A stretch of 64,000 bases of DNA from Flavobacteriales bacterium (GTDB lineage: Bacteria; Bacteroidota; Bacteroidia; Flavobacteriales_F; PHOS-HE28): the NCBI GenBank assembly GCA_023382455.1, contig JAHDVX010000007.1:62001-126000 (forward strand), given 5' to 3'. Each line of letters begins with the position of its first letter. The first letter of the stretch is position 1. Below the pieces are notes generated by a model. The model was not told the DNA's origin, ran no database searches, and was given only the letters and a program-made list of their open reading frames with translations. This document shows, piece by piece, positions 35,624-56,115 of the stretch. Position numbers and translations under genes: made by a program.

Positions 35624-36885
35624 TCACATATTCCGCCTATACTGCCCCCCCACCTCGAACATCGCCTCCGTCAGCTGTCCAAGCGAGCAATACTTCGTCG
35701 CCTCCATCAGCACCGCGAACATGTTCTCATTCTTGATCGCTGCCTGTTGCAGATCGTGGATCGCTTTTTTGCTTTCCTCGGCATAGGCCGTTCTCAAATT
35801 CTCCACGGTGTGGATCTGCGCCTCCTTCTCCTCCTCAGTGGCGCGGATCACTTCCTTCGGCAGGATCGTGGGTGAGCCCTTCGAGCTGAGGAAGGTGTTC
35901 ACGCCGATGACGGGATAGTCCCCGTTGTGTTTCAGCGTTTCGTAGTAGAGGCTTTCCTCTTGGATCTTGCCGCGCTGGTACATGGTCTCCATGGCGCCGA
36001 GCACGCCGCCGCGTTCGGTGATGCGGTCGAACTCCTTCAGCACGGCTTCTTCCACCAGGTCGGTGAGCTCTTCGATGATGAAGGAGCCTTGCAGCGGGTT
36101 CTCGTTCTTGGCCAGGCCGAGCTCCTTGTTGATGATGAGCTCTCGGGTACCACACCGCACCCCGTTCCGGCGCCATGGCGGCACAGCCGCCACCCTTCGG
36201 GCGGGCGCGCTCGTCCGCCCATGCTGCGTTGCTCGGCGGTCGGCTACCTCGTGGTAGCCTCCCTTCCTCGCGCCTTGCCTGGCCGAACGATCATCGCCCG
36301 TGGCATCCGTTCGAGGCACGGCGTGGTACCCTGAGGCCATGGCGCGGCGCACGCTTTCCTCGGTGGGCGTGGTGATGGCCTCGTCGTAGGCGTTGGTGTG
36401 CAGGCTGTTGCAGTTGTCGTAGATGGCGTAGAGCGCTTGCAGCGTGGTGCGGATGTCGTTGAAGTCGATCTCCTGCGCGTGGAGGCTGCGGCCGCTGGTC
36501 TGGATGTGGTACTTGAGCATCTGGCTGCGCTCGTCGGCGCCGTAGCGATGCTTCATCGCCTTGGCCCAGAGGCGGCGTGCCACACGGCCCATCACGGCGT
36601 ACTCGGGGTCCATGCCGTTGCTGAAGAAGAAGCTGAGGTTGGGCGCGAAGGCGTTGATGTCCATGCCCCGGCTGAGGTAGTACTCCACGTAGGTGAAGCC
36701 GTTGGCCAGGGTGAAGGCGAGCTGGCTGATGGGGTTGGCGCCGGCCTCAGCGATGTGGTAGCCGCTGATGCTGACGCTGTAGAAGTTGCGCACCTTCTTG
36801 TCGATGAAGTACTGCTGCACGTCGCCCATCAAGCGCAGCGCGAACTCGGTGCTGAAGATCGTTGTTCTGCGCCTGGTGGTTCTTT
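35624..36885 (-). pseudogene. 5'-truncated icmF copy A (mutase C-terminus) with in-frame insertion
   Basis: The frame encodes about the last 340 residues of the IcmF mutase domain with an intact end, but lacks the B12-binding, GTPase and most of the barrel, so it cannot be a working mutase. From about 36360 to 36858 it appears identical to 49292-49790 of the intact gene; from 35624 to about 36130 it is clearly diverged, mostly at synonymous positions, giving a sharp step. A 193-bp palindromic insertion (36142-36334) keeps the frame open. Similarity to icmF stops at about 36885, where the metal-resistance block begins. Confidence 0.9.
36142..36334. mobile_element. MITE-like palindromic element inserted in icmF copy A
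   Basis: 193 bp absent from the intact gene and from copy B, where the sequence runs straight through. The ends are inverted repeats of about 20 bp built on GGGTACCACRCCG, with a central hairpin (GGCTACC-TCGT-GGTAGCC at 36242-36259). It replaces four bases, a net gain of 189 bp or 63 codons without stop, so the host frame stays open. No transposase is encoded; mobility would need one in trans. Confidence 0.7.
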
Positions 36886-46017: not shown

Positions 46018-46718
46018 TCACATATTCCGCCGATACTGCCCCCCCACCTCGAACATCGCCGCAGTCAACTGCCCGAGCGAGCAATACTTCGTCGCCTCCA
46101 TCAGCACGGCGAACATGTTCTCGTTCCGGATGGCCGCTTGCTGCAGGTCCTTGATCGCCTTCGCCGCTTCCGCGCTGTAGGCCGCGCGTAGGTTCTCCAC
46201 CGTCGCGATCTGCGCTTCCTTCTCCTCCGCGGTGGCGCGGATCACTTCCTTGGGCAGCACGGTGGGTGAGCCCTTGTCGCCTATGCGCCATAGCCGCTTC
46301 GGCGACGGCGCGCTGCTGAGGAAGGTGTTCACGCCGATGATCGGGTATTCACCGGTGTGCTTCAGCGTCTCGTAGTAGAGGCTCTCCTCCTGGATGCGGC
46401 TGCGCTGGTACATGGTCTCCATGGCGCCCAGTACGCCGCCGCGCTCGGTGATGCGGTCGAACTCGCTGAGCACGGCCTCTTCCACCAGGTCGGTGAGCTC
46501 CTCGATGATGAAGCTGCCCTGCAGCGGGTTCTCGTTCTTGGCGAGGCCGAGCTCGCGGTTGATGATGAGCTGGATGGCCATGGCGCGGCGCACGCTCTCC
46601 TCGGTGGGCGTGGTGATGGCCTCGTCGTAGGCGTTGGTGTGCAGGCTGTTGCAGTTGTCGTAGATGGCGTACAGCGCCTGCAACGTGGTGCGGATGTCGT
46701 TGAAGTCGATCTCCTGCG
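46018..46718 (-). pseudogene. 5'-truncated icmF copy B (mutase C-terminus) with 36-bp in-frame insertion
   Basis: Encodes about the last 220 residues of IcmF with the intact end; the open frame continues about 58 bp into unrelated sequence. Similarity to the intact gene stops at about 46718 (after GATCTCCTGCG). By eye it is roughly 90-95% identical to the intact gene throughout, without the sharp step seen in copy A. A 36-bp palindromic insertion (46277-46312) adds 12 residues. Too short to be a functional mutase. Confidence 0.9.
46277..46312. repeat. 36-bp palindromic in-frame insertion in icmF copy B
   Basis: Absent from the intact gene and copy A. Contains CTATG-CGC-CATAG and outer arms TCGCC...GGCGA, so it can fold on itself. 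It adds [12 protein letters not shown] to the reading frame. It is different in sequence from the 193-bp element in copy A. Confidence 0.6.
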
Positions 46719-46809
46719 GGATACCGCACATGAACACAGAAACTGTGCGCAGTACTGTTCGCTTCGGAGTGCCCAACCTTCCGCCGATATCGAGGAAGAC
46801 GTAGCCCGA

Positions 46810-48744: not shown

Positions 48745-51700
48745 TCACATATTCCTCCGGTACTGCCCCCCCACCTCGAACATCGCAGCAGTAAGTTGCC
48801 CAAGCGAGCAATACTTCGTAGCCTCCATCAGCACCTCGAACATATTCTCGTTCCGGATCGCTGCCTCCTGCAATTTCCGCAGCGCCGCCTTCCCTTCTTC
48901 GGCATAAGCCTGCTGCACGTTCTCCACCGTCGCGATCTGCGCCTCCTTCTCCTCCTCGGTGGCGCGGATCACCTCCTTCGGCAGGATCGTGGGTGAGCCC
49001 TTGCTGCTGAGGAAGGTATTGACGCCGATGATCGGGTATTCGCCGGTGTGCTTCAGCGTCTCATAGTAGAGACTTTCCTCTTGGATGCGGCTGCGCTGGT
49101 ACATGGTCTCCATGGCGCCGAGCACGCCGCCGCGTTCGGTGATGCGGTCGAACTCGCTGAGCACGGCCTCTTCCACTAGGTCGGTAAGCTCTTCGATGAT
49201 GAAGCTGCCTTGAAGTGGGTTCTCGTTCTTCGCCAGGCCGAGCTCGCGGTTGATGATGAGCTGGATGGCCATGGCGCGGCGCACGCTCTCCTCGGTGGGC
49301 GTGGTGATGGCCTCGTCGTAGGCGTTGGTGTGCAGGCTGTTGCAGTTGTCGTAGATGGCGTAGAGCGCTTGCAGCGTGGTGCGGATGTCGTTGAAGTCGA
49401 TCTCCTGCGCGTGGAGGCTGCGGCCGCTGGTCTGGATGTGGTACTTGAGCATCTGGCTGCGCTCGTCGGCGCCGTAGCGATGCTTCATCGCCTTGGCCCA
49501 GAGGCGGCGTGCCACACGGCCCATCACGGCGTACTCGGGGTCCATGCCGTTGCTGAAGAAGAAGCTGAGGTTGGGCGCGAAGGCGTTGATGTCCATGCCC
49601 CGGCTGAGGTAGTACTCCACGTAGGTGAAGCCGTTGGCCAGGGTGAAGGCGAGCTGGCTGATGGGGTTGGCGCCGGCCTCAGCGATGTGGTAGCCGCTGA
49701 TGCTGACGCTGTAGAAGTTGCGCACCTTCTTGTCGATGAAGTACTGCTGCACGTCGCCCATCAAGCGCAGCGCGAACTCGGTGCTGAAGATGCAGGTGTT
49801 CTGCGCCTGGTCTTCCTTCAGGATGTCGGCCTGCACGGTGCCGCGGACCTGTTGGAGGGTGTCGGCTTTGATCTTCTCGTACACGTCCTTCGGCAGGACT
49901 TGGTCGCCGGTGATGCCTAAGAGCATTAGTCCGAGACCGTTGTTTCCCTCCGGGATCTCGCCATGGTACTGGGGCCGCAAGCCGCTAGCTCCAAGCTTCA
50001 AGCTTGAGGCTTGTGGCTTATGGCTTGCTGCTCCCCATCGTGCAGCGATCTTCTTCTCCACCTCGGCCTCGAGCCCGTTGGCGCGGATGTACTTCTCGCA
50101 GTTCTGATCGATCGCCGCGTTCATGAAGAAGCCGAGGAGCATGGGCGCGGGACCGTTGATGGTCATGCTCACGCTGGTCTTCGGGTCGCTGAGGTCGAAG
50201 CCGCTGTAGAGCTTCTTGGCATCGTCCAGGCAGCAGATGCTCACGCCGCTGTTGCCCACCTTGCCGTAGATATCGGGACGGCGGCCGGGATCGTTGCCGT
50301 AGAGCGTTACACTGTCGAAGGCGGTGCTGAGGCGCTTGGCGGGCATGCCCTGGCTCACGTAGTGGAAGCGCTTGTTGGTGCGCTCGGGGCCGCCCTCGCC
50401 GGCGAACATGCGCGCGGGGTCCTCGCCGGTACGCTTGAAGGGATAGATGCCTGCGGTGTACGGGAAGAAGCCGGGCGTGTTCTCCTGCATGGCCCAGCGC
50501 ACCTTATCGCCCCAGCTGCGGAACTTGGGCAGCGCCACCTTGGGGATCTTCAGGTGACTGAGGCTCTCGCTGTGGTTGGGCACCTTGATCTCCTTGCCGC
50601 GTACGGAATACGTGTAGAACTCGCCACTGTAGCGTTCCTCTTCGGCCTTCCAGCCGGTGAGCATAGACCAGAGGTGCGGATCCAGGTCCTTCTTGACTTC
50701 CTCGAATTTTCTCGTCAGAGCCTCAAGCTCCAAGCCATAAGCTGCAAGCTTGCTGCCATCAGACCTTGTGCCTTGAGGCTTGTGGCTTGCGGCTTGCTGC
50801 TTGAGGCTTGCGGCTTCGAGCAGGTCCGGACCACCGAAGGTGAGCACCGCGGAATAGAGCCCATAGAGTTTGTCCGCGATCTCCGCTTGCTTCTTCACCT
50901 TGTCATCATACCTCCGGTTGCTTTCGCTGATCTCGCTGAGGTAGCGGCTCTTGGCGGGCGGGATGATCCACACCTTCTCGCTCATCTCGTCGTGCGCGTG
51001 GAAGGTGCTGTCGAGCTCGATGCCGGTCTTCTCGGCGATCTTCCTCATCAACCTCGCGTACAACGCATTGGTGCCGGGGTCGTTGAACTGGCTGGCGATG
51101 GTGCCCACCACGGGCAGGTCCTCGTCCTTGGCGTCGAAGAGCTTGTGGTTGCGCTTGTACTGCTTCTTCACGTCGCGCAAGGCATCGAGGGCGCCGCGCT
51201 TGTCGAACTTGTTGATGGCCACCACGTCGGCGAAATCCAGCATGTCGATCTTCTCCAGCTGCGTGGCCGCGCCGAACTCGGGCGTCATGATGTAGAGCGA
51301 GACATCGCTGTGGTCCAGGATCTCGGTGTCGCTTTGGCCGATGCCGCTCGTTTCGAGCACGATCAGGTCGAAGCCTGCGGCCTTCAGCACGGCCACCGCC
51401 TCCTTCACGTGCTTGCTGAGCGCGAGGTTGCTCTGGCGCGTGGCAAGGCTGCGCATGTATACCCGCTCGCCACGGATGCTGTTCATGCGGATGCGGTCGC
51501 CCAGCAATGCGCCGCCGGTCTTGCGCTTGCTCGGGTCCACGCTGATCACACCGATGGTCTTGCCGGGCTGGTCGAGGATGAAGCGGCGGATGAGCTCGTC
51601 CACCATGGATGATTTCCCCGCGCCGCCCGTGCCCGTGATGCCCAACACCGGGGCCTTGCTCGCCTCGGCCTTCTTGTGGATCTCGTCCGCGATCTTGGCG

Positions 51701-52245
51701 AACACCTCCGGATGGTTCTCGGCCGTGCTGATCAGCTTGGCAATGGCCGGCCAGCTCTGCGGGGTGAGCTTCTTCGCCTCGCCGTTGAGCTGATCGCTCA
51801 AGTCGAAGTCGGCCTTTTCCAGCATGTCGTTGATCATGCCCTGCAGGCCCATGGCGCGGCCGTCGTCCGGGTGGTAGATGCGCGCGATGCCGTAAGCCTC
51901 CAGCTCCTTGATCTCCGCCGGCAGAATGGTGCCGCCGCCTCCGCCGAAGATCTTGATATGCCCCGCGCCCTTCTCCTTCAGCAGGTCGTACATGTACTTG
52001 AAGTACTCCATGTGCCCGCCCTGGTAGCTGGTCATGGCGATGGCGTGCGCATCCTCTTGGATCGCGGTGTTCACCACGTCCTCCACGCTGCGGTCGTGCC
52101 CCAGGTGGATCACCTCGGCGCCCGTGGCCTGGATGATCCGCCGCATGATGTTGATGGCCGCATCATGGCCGTCGAAGAGCGACGCGGCGGTGACGACGCG
52201 GATCTTGTGCTTGGGGACGTAAGGTTTGGCGACGGGATGTGACAT
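48745..52245 (-). CDS. icmF: Fused isobutyryl-CoA mutase IcmF
   Basis: 1166 aa from the ATG at 52245 ([11 protein letters not shown]). Coenzyme-B12-dependent carbon-skeleton mutase with built-in chaperone. N-terminal B12-binding domain with [13 protein letters not shown]; central MeaB-like G domain with Walker [26 protein letters not shown] and [13 protein letters not shown]-terminal mutase barrel with [27 protein letters not shown] and [11 protein letters not shown] at the end. It interconverts isobutyryl- and butyryl-CoA or related acyl-CoAs. Two Ala/Ser/Lys/Gln-rich segments (about residues 475-510 and 738-756) come from inserted 7-bp repeat arrays. Four 5'-truncated copies of its 3' end lie downstream. 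Confidence 0.95.
49978..50032. repeat. Inverted heptamer repeats inside icmF (array 1)
   Basis: The left half is built on CAAGCNN units (CAAGCTT CAAGCTT), the right half on their reverse complement (GAGGCTT GTGGCTT ATGGCTT GCTGCTC), so the array can form a hairpin. It encodes [12 protein letters not shown] in the mutase domain, a stretch not expected in the family. Confidence 0.75.
50718..50820. repeat. Inverted heptamer repeats inside icmF (array 2)
   Basis: Left: CCTCAAG CTCCAAG CCATAAG CTGCAAG; right: CCTTGAG GCTTGTG GCTTGCG GCTTGCT GCTTGAG GCTTGCG. It is in frame and encodes an Ala/Gln/Lys-rich linker ([13 protein letters not shown]) between the G domain and the mutase domain. Confidence 0.78.
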
Positions 52246-52565
52246 GGCGCGAAAATACCGCCGTGCGCGGCAATGCAAGGCGGGGCAGGTGATGGTGGAT
52301 TGGTGACTGGCTCCCACAGCGATCTCGCGCAGCGGATCTTGCGGCTGAAGAATCCTGATCAGGCCGAAGGGCTGTATCCGTCTTGTTTCACCCGCCATTG
52401 CATCGGGCTGCGGGGGCTTCCTACGCCTGTCTCCTCGCCAGGTGCACTGCTCGGGTTCGCCTATACCAGGCTGCCGCTGCCACCCTGGGCGGAGATCACG
52501 TTCCAACTACCACGCAACCGATCATTCAAGAACCGGATCTCCGGTACTTTCACGACCTTTCCGCC
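52246..52565. other. Divergent intergenic region between icmF and the WYL regulator
   Basis: Holds the icmF promoter at its left edge (TATTTTCG at 52250-52257 with TTG 18 nt upstream, minus strand). TACTTTCA and CCTTTCC precede the WYL start. The middle (about 52300-52520) shows no supported gene; short open frames there have no recognisable product. Confidence 0.5.
52250..52278 (-). promoter_or_regulatory. Probable icmF promoter
   Basis: Minus strand: TTG (52276-52278), 18 nt, TATTTTCG (52250-52257; one mismatch to TAnnTTTG), ending four bases before the ATG. Confidence 0.5.
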
Positions 52566-53462
52566 ATGTCCCATCGCGGCAAGCTTAAACGTTATTTGCT
52601 CCTCCTCGAACGGCTGCAACACGCCCCAAGCCTCAATGACCTGCTGGACCACATGCAGGAACACGGCTTCCGGTTAAGCAGCCGCACCCTGCAGCGCGAC
52701 CTGAACGACCTGCGCGACGAGTTTGGCGCGCAGGTGATCTACGACAGGACCACAAACACGTATGCCGTTGCAGAAGATCTGGTCGCCGACATGCCCGGCC
52801 TCCTGCAATTGCTGGAACGCGGCCAACTCCTGGATCTGGTCCACTCCGGGAACAAAGGGATGGCCGAACTGCACCGCCATGTGCATTTCGAAGGCCTTGG
52901 GCAGCTTCGTGGCATCCAGCACCTGCCACCGCTTTTGCGCGCCATTCGTGAACGGCGTGCCGTGGAGGTCACCTACCGGAAATTCCATGCGGACAAGGCG
53001 AAAACTTACCGGCTTCACCCGCATCTGCTGAAGGAGTCCCAAGGGCGTTGGCATGTACTGGGCCCCACCACGCAGCACGGCCACCCCATTGCACTGGGCC
53101 TGGACCGTATCGAAGGGCTCCAGGTGCTCCCAACCCGTTTCACCCGGAAGGAAATTGAATTGGCCACGCTGTATGACCATACCATTGGCGTGGACACCAG
53201 TCCAGGCCGGCCGGAACGGATCGTTCTGCTCTTCAATGCCACCCAGGCACAATACATCGAGGCATTGCCCCTGCATCCTTCCCAGCAAGTGGAACAGAAG
53301 GACAAGAATGGCACTGTCATCTCCTTGTTCGTCATGCCCAATTTTGAGCTGAGGCAGATCATCCTGTCCATGGGGGCTTCCGTGCGTGTACTGGAACCCA
53401 TGCATCTTGCCAAGGCCATCCGCCAAGCCCACAGGGACGCCGCCGCGCTGTACGGAAAATAA
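52566..53462 (+). CDS. WYL-domain transcriptional regulator
   Basis: 298 aa from the ATG at 52566 (MSHRGKLKRYLLLLE). N-terminal helix-turn-helix with RLSSRTLQRDLNDLRDEFG; then the WYL domain, with EVTYRKFHADKAKTYRLHPHLLKESQGRWHVL broken across its conserved block; then the C-terminal WCX part (RIVLLFNATQAQYI). WYL proteins bind nucleic-acid-type or nucleotide ligands and often repress phage-defence operons (BrxR/CapW type). It lies 53 bp upstream of the AAA-M41 gene on the same strand. Confidence 0.88.
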   Translation: MSHRGKLKRYLLLLERLQHAPSLNDLLDHMQEHGFRLSSRTLQRDLNDLRDEFGAQVIYDRTTNTYAVAEDLVADMPGLLQLLERGQLLDLVHSGNKGMAELHRHVHFEGLGQLRGIQHLPPLLRAIRERRAVEVTYRKFHADKAKTYRLHPHLLKESQGRWHVLGPTTQHGHPIALGLDRIEGLQVLPTRFTRKEIELATLYDHTIGVDTSPGRPERIVLLFNATQAQYIEALPLHPSQQVEQKDKNGTVISLFVMPNFELRQIILSMGASVRVLEPMHLAKAIRQAHRDAAALYGK

Positions 53463-53515
53463 CCGCTCCGGATACTGCGACATGTTTTGTCATTGTGTTG
53501 GCGGATCCTTGCGGC

Positions 53516-55423
53516 ATGAAAGCACCATCCCTCCCCCCGACCATCGACGAAAGGAGCGCCCGCCTGCACGGGTTGAATGAGCGCCTCCGCGAAAGGCACT
53601 TCGGCATAGACGCCGAGATCCAGCGGCTGCTGGATGCCTTCGCCCCGTGGTACCGGTTCGCCGAATCGCAAATGCGCCCGCGCACCATCGGCCTCTGGGG
53701 CATGACCGGCACCGGCAAGAGCAGCCTGGTGCGCTCCTTGGTGAAAGCGGTCGGACTGGAAGATCGCACGTTCTGGCTTGATGCCTCGGAACTGAACAAT
53801 CGATATGGTGGCCTGTCCAAAGTGACGGACCGCATTGAGGAACACTTGGACGGCGCTCCCTTCATCATTGTGGTGGACGAATTCCAACATGCCCGGACTA
53901 CACATTTGGGAGTGCCCCTTGCAGAATCCAATGAGATCAGGCACTTCTGGGAGTTGTTGGACTCCGGGCGGATCCTCGCTTGGCCAAGTCGCGGGTGGCA
54001 ACGGCACCTATATGAACTCCGCAGGGATTTCAAGCAATGCGTGAACATGGGAGTCCGCGTCCATCAAGGAAAAGTGACCGAGCACTACGACCTGTTCCAT
54101 GCCTATGTAATGAAGGATCGGCACCATGACGACGAACACTGGGCCATTCCAGCCAGGATCTGGGATGACATCCGAGACATGCACCAGCCTCCAATGCCCA
54201 CTATTCATGACATCGGGCAAAAACTGGCCACGTTGAATGAATGGGAGATCCTCGACTGGCTGGAGGAACTGGAGACCAACACGCGGCACCCCCGGTTTGT
54301 CAATGCCAGCAAGGCGCTCATAATCCTGCTTGGCAATCTCGACGAACTCTACGTGGGCGGCAAGGAACCCATGGCCGAACTGGACCCGGAGGTGTTGGCT
54401 CATCGCCATCAAGACCTGGGCAGGGCAGGCGTGCAGCACGCGCTGCTGAGGTTGTTCCGCATCGAGCAAGTGGGGCGGATCGGCGGATCGCACGTGGTCT
54501 TCCCCCCGGTGGGCCAAGCCACGATCGATGCCATCGTGCAGGAGGAAGTCGGCGGGCTGGCCGCCCGGCTCTCCGCGCACACGGGTCGCCGCATTGAGGT
54601 GGATGCCGCGCTGGTGGACCACCTGCGGGCCACGTCCTCCATTGCCGTATTGGGCGCGCGGCCCGTTGTGCAGGCCGTCCAAAACACCGTTCCGATGCTG
54701 CTTTCGCAAGCCTTGGAGAACCCGCAGGCGGTTGGTGCCGAAGCATTCCGGCTCGGCCTGTGCGAGGGTGTACCCGTGGCGGACCTGCATTTCAGCGACG
54801 GGCATGACCAGCGCGTGGAACTGGCTTGGGCGGCCCAGCCCGAAAAGGCCACGACCGCCGGGACGGCCAAAATGGGGCACATTGCCGTCCATGAGGCAGG
54901 TCATCTGCTGTGCGGCGTGCTGCTGCGCGGCAGGAAGCCGTTGCAGGTATGCGTGCGCACCCGTGACCCGCGCGTCGGCGGCTTCGTGGTGTGGGACGTG
55001 CGGCCCGGCCAGGTCCTCCTTCGGGCGGACATCATCCCGGAACTGGCGGTGATGCTCGCCGGGCGTGCCGCGGAAGAACTCCACTTCGGAGCCGGCAAGG
55101 TGAGCGCGGGGAACGAGGACGATATCCGGAAGGCCACGGCCTTTGCCTTGGACATGGCCAGGAACGAGGGCATGGGCGCGAAGCGGCTGCACTATGCGCC
55201 TCACGCCGCAGCGAACGACAGCGGTTTCCACACCGTGTTCGCCGACGCCGAAATACAGGCCCAGCAATGGGTGGAAGCAGCCGAGGCCTTGGCCATGGAC
55301 ACGCTGCGGGCGAACAGGGACCTTTTCCTACTGTGCTTGGCCGCCCTGAAGAAGAAGGGTTCCCTCGGCATCCAGGAACTGGAGGAGCTGTTCCGTAACA
55401 TTGTTCCTACTGGCAATTACTAA
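53516..55423 (+). CDS. AAA ATPase fused to an FtsH-like M41 metallopeptidase (soluble)
   Basis: 635 aa from the ATG at 53516. N-terminal AAA-type NTPase: Walker A GMTGTGKSS (residues 62-70) and Walker B FIIVVDEFQHA (residues 116-126). C-terminal M41-like peptidase: zinc motif HEAGH (459-463) and the third-ligand helix NEDDIRKATAFALDMARNEG, as in FtsH. Unlike FtsH there are no membrane segments, and the AAA part is closer to ClpB/RuvB-like domains. A self-contained ATP-dependent protease is predicted. Its place between a WYL regulator and a possible DNA-glycosylase-fold protein suggests a stress or defence role (inference). Confidence 0.82.
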   Translation: MKAPSLPPTIDERSARLHGLNERLRERHFGIDAEIQRLLDAFAPWYRFAESQMRPRTIGLWGMTGTGKSSLVRSLVKAVGLEDRTFWLDASELNNRYGGLSKVTDRIEEHLDGAPFIIVVDEFQHARTTHLGVPLAESNEIRHFWELLDSGRILAWPSRGWQRHLYELRRDFKQCVNMGVRVHQGKVTEHYDLFHAYVMKDRHHDDEHWAIPARIWDDIRDMHQPPMPTIHDIGQKLATLNEWEILDWLEELETNTRHPRFVNASKALIILLGNLDELYVGGKEPMAELDPEVLAHRHQDLGRAGVQHALLRLFRIEQVGRIGGSHVVFPPVGQATIDAIVQEEVGGLAARLSAHTGRRIEVDAALVDHLRATSSIAVLGARPVVQAVQNTVPMLLSQALENPQAVGAEAFRLGLCEGVPVADLHFSDGHDQRVELAWAAQPEKATTAGTAKMGHIAVHEAGHLLCGVLLRGRKPLQVCVRTRDPRVGGFVVWDVRPGQVLLRADIIPELAVMLAGRAAEELHFGAGKVSAGNEDDIRKATAFALDMARNEGMGAKRLHYAPHAAANDSGFHTVFADAEIQAQQWVEAAEALAMDTLRANRDLFLLCLAALKKKGSLGIQELEELFRNIVPTGNY

Positions 55424-55434
55424 ACGCAACAAGC

Positions 55435-56115
55435 ATGAGAACGAACGAACTGGATAAGCATTTCAATAAGTGGATGAAAGAGGCTATGATCAGTCCCGAA
55501 TTTTTCCACAAGGACGGCATCATCGACGAGCCTTTATGGAACAAAGCCAAGCCACGGATATGCTTCCTGATGAAGGAACCCAACAACCCTGAGGGTAAAG
55601 CATTCGACTTTCGCGAGTGGTGGCGTGATGAACCGATCAAGGGGGGCTTCTCTGCTCGCGTAGCTGAATGGTCGCGAGGAATGATCGAGGATTTCCCTCC
55701 GTATGATGAACTCTGGAGAACGAATGATGAGCGGGACATAAGAGAGATCAGGAAGTCGATTGCCTTGGTGAACGTGAAGAAAACGGGGGGAGAAGGGCTC
55801 TCCGAATACAAGCCCTTCATGCTGGAAGCCTTCGGTGCGAATAGTGAAGAACAAGGTACAAGCACTGCCCGCGTTCTCGATCAAATCGATATCATCGATC
55901 CGCAAGTCATCATACTTGGGCTGAGTTGGGAGAGCCTGAGGCAGCTGCTTTTCCCGGACGTGGAATGGAAGCCGACGGGATGCGGTATCGATGTGGGAAC
56001 CTGGAAGCGGAGAAGGCTAATCGATTTCTACCATCCATCTGCAAAGAATGCCCCTCCCGCTTCCTACGCCCTGCTGGAGAAGGTGTGGCGCTCCGATGTG
56101 TTCAAGTCGCTGTAG
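55435..56115 (+). CDS. Unknown protein, possible uracil-DNA-glycosylase fold
   Basis: 226 aa, 11 bp after the AAA-M41 gene. PRICFLMKEPNNPEGKAFDF could be the first UDG-like motif, SIALVNVKKTGG a following strand, IDPQVIILGLSWESLRQLL a late strand-helix, and DFYHPSAKNAPPASYALLE resembles the H-P-S motif of uracil-DNA glycosylases. No catalytic assignment is safe. Codon use is visibly more AT-rich than neighbours. It is probably in one operon with the WYL and AAA-M41 genes. Confidence 0.5.
   Translation: MRTNELDKHFNKWMKEAMISPEFFHKDGIIDEPLWNKAKPRICFLMKEPNNPEGKAFDFREWWRDEPIKGGFSARVAEWSRGMIEDFPPYDELWRTNDERDIREIRKSIALVNVKKTGGEGLSEYKPFMLEAFGANSEEQGTSTARVLDQIDIIDPQVIILGLSWESLRQLLFPDVEWKPTGCGIDVGTWKRRRLIDFYHPSAKNAPPASYALLEKVWRSDVFKSL

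What the first reader, a model, noticed from the sequence alone, without database searches (positions are those of the whole stretch)
52566..56115. WYL regulator + soluble AAA-M41 protease + possible UDG-fold protein
A three-gene same-strand block with gaps of 53 and 11 bp. WYL regulators often control phage-defence operons. The middle protein joins an NTPase to an FtsH-type peptidase without membrane segments, an unusual combination. The third protein is AT-richer than its surroundings and unassigned. Together they could form an uncharacterised conflict or stress system, and they sit beside the icmF accessory array.
Basis: partly seen in the sequence, partly recalled or inferred. Interest (0 to 1): 0.7.

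Follow-up and report, generated by a model that had tools for sequence, protein, structure and literature searches.

The report
WYL-switched soluble Clp–M41 protease module

Summary
The block is real, but it is a two-gene module plus a passenger. The WYL regulator and AAA-M41 gene recur together: 6 of 45 genus genomes carry AAA-M41 and all six have WYL beside it; among 88 non-redundant bacterial loci WYL is adjacent in 33 and within two genes in 44. The third gene never accompanies them elsewhere, and its UDG fold could not be shown. The AAA part is not FtsH-type: profile and fold searches place it with the Clp/HSP100 second AAA+ domain, fused to an intact M41 peptidase, without membrane segment. 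I found no named family for this combination. Homologues without WYL lie on 45 IMG/VR contigs with phage-type neighbours. Between WYL and AAA-M41 lies a palindrome, CGNCA-N5-TGNCG (window 53478-53492). It recurs about 50 bp before AAA-M41 and other island genes, 11-12 bp from the Bacteroidota -7 box TAnnTTTG (35 exact genome sites against 1 for the reversed pattern). It matches the core of the published DriD operator, and DriD is among the best solved-structure matches of the WYL family. Best reading: an ssDNA-responsive WYL activator induces a soluble Clp-M41 protease during DNA damage or phage attack. Ligand, substrates and a defence role are inferred.

The parts
52566..53462 (+). WYL-family transcription regulator (HTH-like N-terminus, WYL, WCX), 298 aa
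   Evidence: PF13280 1.9e-13 and PF25583 1.4e-12; the family profile's best solved-structure matches include 8tp8 (DriD), then PafBC and CapW; 45-64% identical orthologue beside AAA-M41 in five more genomes of the genus
53478..53492 (+). Conserved palindromic element CGACATGTTTTGTCA (CGNCA-N5-TGNCG type; CGAC-N7-GTCG core), candidate WYL activator site
   Evidence: Identical in L026 and L027 although flanks differ, near-identical in L028, related in L030; recurs upstream of AAA-M41 across the phylum; the only such site (<=1 mismatch) in this genome
53504..53511 (+). Degenerate -7-like box GATCCTTG at 11 bp from the element (consensus elsewhere TAnnTTTG)
   Evidence: inference by position, weak match in this high-GC genome
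53516..55423 (+). Soluble AAA+ (Clp/HSP100-D2-like) motor fused to M41 metallopeptidase; GTG 53495 is an alternative start (642 aa from GTG)
   Evidence: PF10431, PF00004 and PF01434 above cut-offs; AlphaFold pLDDT 90, pTM 0.87; residues 16-433 match ClpC Z 23.1, residues 454-642 match AFG3L2 M41 Z 21.3; Walker A K75, D128, sensor N281, R328, R389, HExxH and D543 invariant in 82 members
55435..56115 (+). 226-aa orphan accessory gene, probably a passenger on the same transcript
   Evidence: No family hit; homologues in 6 of 296 sampled phylum genomes including this one, and in G033, none of the others beside AAA-M41; low GC

Best explanation
A DriD-like WYL activator controls a soluble ATP-dependent protease. 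Single-stranded DNA (or a similar nucleic-acid signal) made during DNA damage or phage attack is sensed by the WYL protein, which binds the CGAC-N7-GTCG palindrome at a fixed distance from the -7 box and switches on AAA-M41 and whatever cargo lies downstream. The AAA-M41 protein presumably forms a ring in which the Clp-type motor threads substrates into the zinc peptidase chamber and so removes particular proteins under that stress. Shown: the WYL/AAA-M41 linkage, the domain make-up, intact catalytic residues, and the conserved element with fixed promoter spacing and its tie to WYL loci. Inferred: binding of the element by this WYL protein, activation rather than repression, ssDNA as ligand, hexamer and processive proteolysis, and the phage/DNA-damage context.
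For: Linkage: all six genus genomes with AAA-M41 have WYL beside it, and in five of them it is the only WYL gene found in the genome; 88 loci: adjacent 33, within two genes 44, mostly at position -1; WYL and AAA-M41 divergences correlate, Mantel r 0.54, and 0.60 without the own genus, 0 of 2000 permutations as high. Domains. Element: PWM built from WYL/AAA-M41 gaps, 77 hits in 1.04 Mb of these loci, 3 in 228 kb of control, 0 in 560 kb of viral loci; TAnnTTTG follows at offset 11 in 31 of 100 sites and at 12 in 5, at no other offset from 7 to 15, although the box was not used in selection; composite pattern in 345 genomes: 35 sites in 17 genomes, reversed control 1; 9 of 30 fetched 3-kb loci around such sites hold a WYL gene of this family, three with the site directly before it; element before AAA-M41 in 37 of 44 loci with WYL within two genes, 0 of 8 RtcB-type loci, 2 of 88 shuffled 200-mers. 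DriD: published site ATACGAC(X)7GTCGTAT overlapping -35, activator, ssDNA ligand (PMC12340889); 8tp8 among the best solved-structure matches. PafBC: ssDNA-activated WYL activator (PMC11804915), encoded with the Pup-proteasome gene pafA (PMC5656591). Defence-type neighbours.
Against: No binding, expression or protease data. BrxR- and CapW-type WYL proteins are repressors in defence loci, so activation is not certain. The aromatic-hydrophobic-glycine pore loop of unfoldases is not conserved at the equivalent place, so the motor may not be a classical processive unfoldase. In this high-GC genome the -7 box is degenerate. About a third of the loci show no WYL (some are cut short), and RtcB-type loci lack both WYL and element. 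The neighbourhood also holds housekeeping genes.
Confidence: 0.6

Rival explanations
1. A WYL repressor (BrxR/CapW-like) silences a phage-defence effector: AAA-M41 is a conflict protease released on infection, acting by degrading phage or essential host proteins.
For: WYL repressors in defence islands are established (PMC9122601, PMC9122588); CapW structures are among the solved matches; defence-type neighbours enriched; patchy distribution.
Against: The element lies at a fixed 11-12 bp from the -7 box in front of many different genes, as expected of an activator site; only 6 of 55 WYL genes carry the element (<=1 mismatch) before themselves; DriD-type chains score better than CapW.
Confidence: 0.2
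2. The module is a protein/RNA quality-control factor for ribosome or RNA damage; the WYL switch is one of several ways to control it.
For: RtcB is in the AAA-M41 locus of eight genomes, with RF-1-type PrfH in six and with a KptA/Tpt1 gene downstream in several Bacteroidales; the RtcB association appears on separate branches of the tree. PrfH-RtcB is described as a repair system against ribosome-targeting effectors (PMC6514570).
Against: Most AAA-M41 loci, including the window, have no RNA-repair gene; those with RtcB have neither WYL nor element.
Confidence: 0.15
3. The three genes form a dedicated system with the third protein as effector.
For: 11-bp gap, same strand; in G025 and G023 another gene family occupies the same slot with a 4-bp overlap, so the slot downstream of AAA-M41 may hold variable effectors.
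Against: The third gene is absent from all other AAA-M41 genomes of the genus and its relatives stand elsewhere.
Confidence: 0.05

Closest known systems
FtsH / m-AAA and i-AAA proteases (peptidase family M41)
   Same: M41 domain with HExxH and distal Asp; C-terminal part superposes on AFG3L2 M41 (Z 21.3, 183 residues)
   Different: Motor is Clp/HSP100-D2-like, not FtsH AAA; no transmembrane anchor; far below the FtsH model's cut-off (52.7 against 600 bits); accessory, not universal
ClpB/ClpC second AAA+ domain (HSP100)
   Same: Motor domain: D2-small domain, sensor-2 GxRP motif, best fold matches
   Different: Peptidase fused in cis and of M41 type instead of ClpP; roughly 100-residue insertion between Walker B and sensor 1; pore loop not conserved
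DriD of Caulobacter (ssDNA-activated WYL activator)
   Same: WYL-WCX match; operator core CGAC-N7-GTCG; fixed position in front of the -10/-7 box
   Different: Regulates an AAA-M41 module and island cassettes in Bacteroidota; ligand unknown; sequence similarity remote
PafBC with the Pup-proteasome locus (Actinobacteria)
   Same: WYL regulator encoded with a proteolysis gene; ssDNA-activated DNA-damage response (PMC11804915, PMC5656591)
   Different: Single WYL protein, unrelated protease, different phylum
BrxR / CapW WYL repressors of defence systems
   Same: WYL regulator in defence-type islands
   Different: Those are repressors; here the site spacing suggests activation

Membership tests
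FtsH (TIGR01241) | M41 peptidase with HExxH and third zinc ligand Asp | tested here: met
   H466, E467, H470 and D543 invariant in 82 members; PF01434 over cut-off
FtsH (TIGR01241) | FtsH-type AAA domain and equivalog score | tested here: not met
   52.7 bits against a cut-off of 600, match limited to residues 460-563; AAA part nearest Clp D2
FtsH (TIGR01241) | N-terminal membrane anchor | tested here: not met
   No hydrophobic segment (max KD19 1.25), soluble model
HSP100/Clp AAA+ (D2 type) | Large and D2-small subdomains with Walker A/B, sensors | tested here: met
   PF10431 28 bits over 21.9; invariant K75, D128, N281, R328, R389; ClpC/ClpB Z about 22-23 over ~290 residues
HSP100/Clp AAA+ (D2 type) | Aromatic-hydrophobic-Gly pore loop for threading | tested here: inconclusive
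   Loop shortened; aromatic residue frequent but no conserved motif
DriD-like WYL activators | WYL and WCX domains after an HTH | tested here: met
   PF13280 and PF25583 over cut-offs; HTH read from sequence only; 8tp8 among best PDB matches
DriD-like WYL activators | Operator CGAC-N7-GTCG at fixed distance from the -10 box | tested here: met
   Element and fixed 11-12 bp spacing against the published site; binding itself untested
DriD-like WYL activators | ssDNA binding and transcription activation | not testable with these tools
   needs biochemistry
Known anti-phage systems (PADLOC) | Match of AAA-M41 or third protein to a defence model | tested here: not met
   Only weak ATPase matches to AAA-M41 (best 0.0039), none to the third protein
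Uracil-DNA glycosylase superfamily (third protein) | UDG profile or fold | tested here: inconclusive
   No Pfam hit; model failed at pLDDT 33; hhalign negative, but a Pfam-positive UDG control also failed

The most novel reading that the evidence does not exclude
Bacteroidota carry an ssDNA-activated, DriD-like WYL regulon, defined by CGNCA-N5-TGNCG plus 11-12 bp plus TAnnTTTG, that switches on island cassettes whose commonest member is a previously unnamed soluble Clp-M41 protease; large phages carry the same protease without the switch, suggesting that both sides of a phage-host conflict use it.
Probability: 0.4. Interest if true: 0.85.

Novelty: new variant of a known kind. Interest (0 to 1): 0.72.

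Why it matters
It adds an AAA+ protease architecture (Clp-type motor fused to an FtsH-type peptidase, soluble) spread over Bacteroidota and large phage contigs, and gives a concrete, testable promoter code for WYL regulation in a phylum where WYL-controlled stress and defence programmes appear little studied in the papers found here. It links a DNA-damage type of sensor directly to protein destruction, as PafBC and the Pup-proteasome do in Actinobacteria.

Tried and rejected
Trio as a conserved system: rejected by the survey. FtsH housekeeping gene: rejected (separate FtsH; 6 of 45 genomes). AAA-M41 in plasmid or named-phage collections: only FtsH-like partial M41 matches. UDG fold: AlphaFold from one sequence failed, no viral homologues to deepen the alignment, profile comparison insensitive. 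Palindromes directly upstream of WYL in the genus: none shared. Literature for a WYL/AAA-M41 or Clp-M41 family: no paper found; the RNA-repair review by Burroughs and Aravind 2016 is not held, so a mention there is not excluded. Insertion-site analysis: the region upstream of icmF is variable across the genus, so no clean empty site was defined.

Full report
What is there. The window is G000:C7:62001-126000 of a 3.43-Mb Bacteroidia genome whose order holds a single sampled genus. Three + strand ORFs stand at 52566-53462, 53495/53516-55423 and 55435-56115. The first is a WYL regulator, the second an AAA+ protein with an M41 peptidase, the third has no family.

The pair is a module, the trio is not. 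Full-length AAA-M41 occurs in 6 of 45 genomes of the genus, while FtsH is a separate gene in the own genome. In all six a WYL gene stands beside it, 45-64% identical to the window's in the other five, and in five of the six it is the only WYL gene detected in the genome. The order can vary: in L029 WYL lies after AAA-M41. With profiles of the AAA part, further members appeared in Bacteroidia and beyond (17 of 345 class genomes including five of this genus; 5 of 296 in the phylum sample including the own genome). A scan of the GTDB contigs confirmed 281 matching stretches, of which the best 80 (79 loci) were kept. In 88 non-redundant bacterial loci, WYL lies within the sequence held in 55, within two genes in 44 and adjacent in 33, mostly just upstream. 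The genomes checked hold 1-3 WYL genes, so chance adjacency is negligible. Distances between WYL proteins track distances between AAA-M41 proteins (Mantel r 0.54; 0.60 without the own genus; 0 of 2000 permutations). The third gene, by contrast, is absent from every other AAA-M41 genome of the genus; its relatives in six other genomes (five from the phylum sample plus G033) stand in unrelated places.

The protein. The peptidase half is a canonical M41 domain: HExxH and the distal Asp are invariant in 82 members. The motor half is not FtsH-type. It carries the ClpB D2-small domain. An AlphaFold model from 82 rows (pLDDT 90, pTM 0.87) matches ClpC/ClpB second AAA+ domains over residues 16-433 (Z about 23) and the AFG3L2 M41 domain over 454-642 (Z 21.3). 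Walker A, Walker B, sensor 1, an arginine-finger candidate and sensor 2 are invariant or nearly so. There is no hydrophobic segment. An insertion of about 100 residues lies between Walker B and sensor 1, and the usual aromatic pore loop is not conserved, which leaves the unfolding mechanism open.

Phage relatives. 45 loci from IMG/VR contigs, many 60-480 kb long, encode the same architecture, none with a WYL gene of this family in the stretch held. Their neighbours match PHROGs of phage type: helicases, thymidylate synthase, nicotinamide phosphoribosyltransferase, HNH endonucleases. In the tree most fall together, apart from the bacterial loci. That these contigs are phage rests on IMG/VR and those neighbours.

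A conserved promoter element. The short WYL/AAA-M41 gap contains CGACATGTTTTGTCA (53478-53492). The 15-mer is identical in L026 and L027 although the flanks have diverged, has two differences in L028 and a related form in L030. The same kind of site, CGNCA-N5-TGNCG with an inner TTTG, lies about 50 bp before AAA-M41 in many distant loci. A PWM gave 77 hits in 1.04 Mb of AAA-M41 loci, 3 in 228 kb of control regions from the same genomes and none in 560 kb of viral loci. Of 100 sites selected on the palindrome and TTTG alone, 31 have an exact TAnnTTTG exactly 11 bp downstream and 5 at 12 bp, none at other offsets tested from 7 to 15. TAnnTTTG is, from established knowledge, the -7 box of Bacteroidota promoters. 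The exact composite pattern occurs 35 times in 17 of 345 genomes; the pattern read backwards occurs once. Nine of 30 fetched 3-kb loci around these sites hold a WYL gene of this family, and three sites stand directly before such a gene, even where no AAA-M41 was seen. Upstream of AAA-M41 the element is found in 37 of 44 loci with WYL within two genes and in 0 of 8 RtcB-type loci. In the own genome the site at 53478 is the only one with at most one mismatch. The element also precedes other island genes, among them DUF2779, PDDEXK_4 and DnaB_C-like genes.

Mechanism. DriD of Caulobacter is an ssDNA-binding WYL activator with the published site ATACGAC(X)7GTCGTAT, placed at a constant distance from the -10 and overlapping -35 (PMC12340889). 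CGACA-N5-TGTCG is the same core, CGAC-N7-GTCG. Among solved structures the family profile's best group includes 8tp8 (DriD; E 1.8e-5), ahead of PafBC and CapW. PafBC, also ssDNA-activated (PMC11804915), is encoded with pafA of the Pup-proteasome (PMC5656591). I therefore infer an ssDNA- or nucleic-acid-responsive activator that induces the protease. Neighbourhoods are richer in defence-type genes than control regions (54 against 3 PADLOC models; redundant models inflate the first number), and DUF2779 is the commonest neighbour. Defence as such is not shown.

A second context. In Dysgonomonas, Tannerella and relatives AAA-M41 stands with RtcB, usually with RF-1-type PrfH and often with KptA/Tpt1, and lacks WYL and element; L061 shows an RtcB-PrfH link on another branch. 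PrfH-RtcB is described as a response to ribosome damage in conflicts (PMC6514570). The protease may thus serve more than one damage response.

Limits. Gene calls are longest-ORF heuristics; loci were chosen by similarity to the query and many are cut short; the tree is a quick one; the UDG question is open; nothing here measures binding, expression or proteolysis.

Noticed in passing
L101, L112, L122, L129, L132, L093, L061 (AAA-M41 loci): RtcB with RF-1-type PrfH stands before AAA-M41, with KptA/Tpt1 after it in several Bacteroidales; an RNA-repair operon that seems to have recruited the same protease, on more than one branch of the tree.
   Followed up: partly
L069 6071-7178 and L070 6031-7138 (G033): The third-gene homologue lies on a 1108-bp stretch present twice, 100% identical and in opposite orientation, in one replicon: a single-gene element that appears to move or duplicate.
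   Followed up: partly
L269-L288 (G064, G328): Two related genomes carry 8-9 exact composite WYL-type promoter sites each, one set in front of an M15/VanY-type peptidase gene and some in front of WYL genes; possibly a larger WYL regulon without detected AAA-M41.
   Followed up: partly
window 36335-36871 and 46018-46776: Partial copies of the icmF-like gene (about 93-98% identical in protein to parts of the full copy or its relative) elsewhere in the window.
   Followed up: no
window 48745-52506: The icmF-like protein contains in-frame low-complexity peptides such as AASHKPQ...SSLKL at two places, which look like inserted repeat sequences.
   Followed up: no
L058 7520-8047: A PF03167 (UDG superfamily) gene lies between WYL and AAA-M41 in one distant locus; not detectably related to the window's third protein.
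   Followed up: partly
L026 7585-8244, L027 7800-8525: A family of 219-241 aa without Pfam match overlaps the end of AAA-M41 by 4 bp in two relatives: another occupant of the downstream slot.
   Followed up: no
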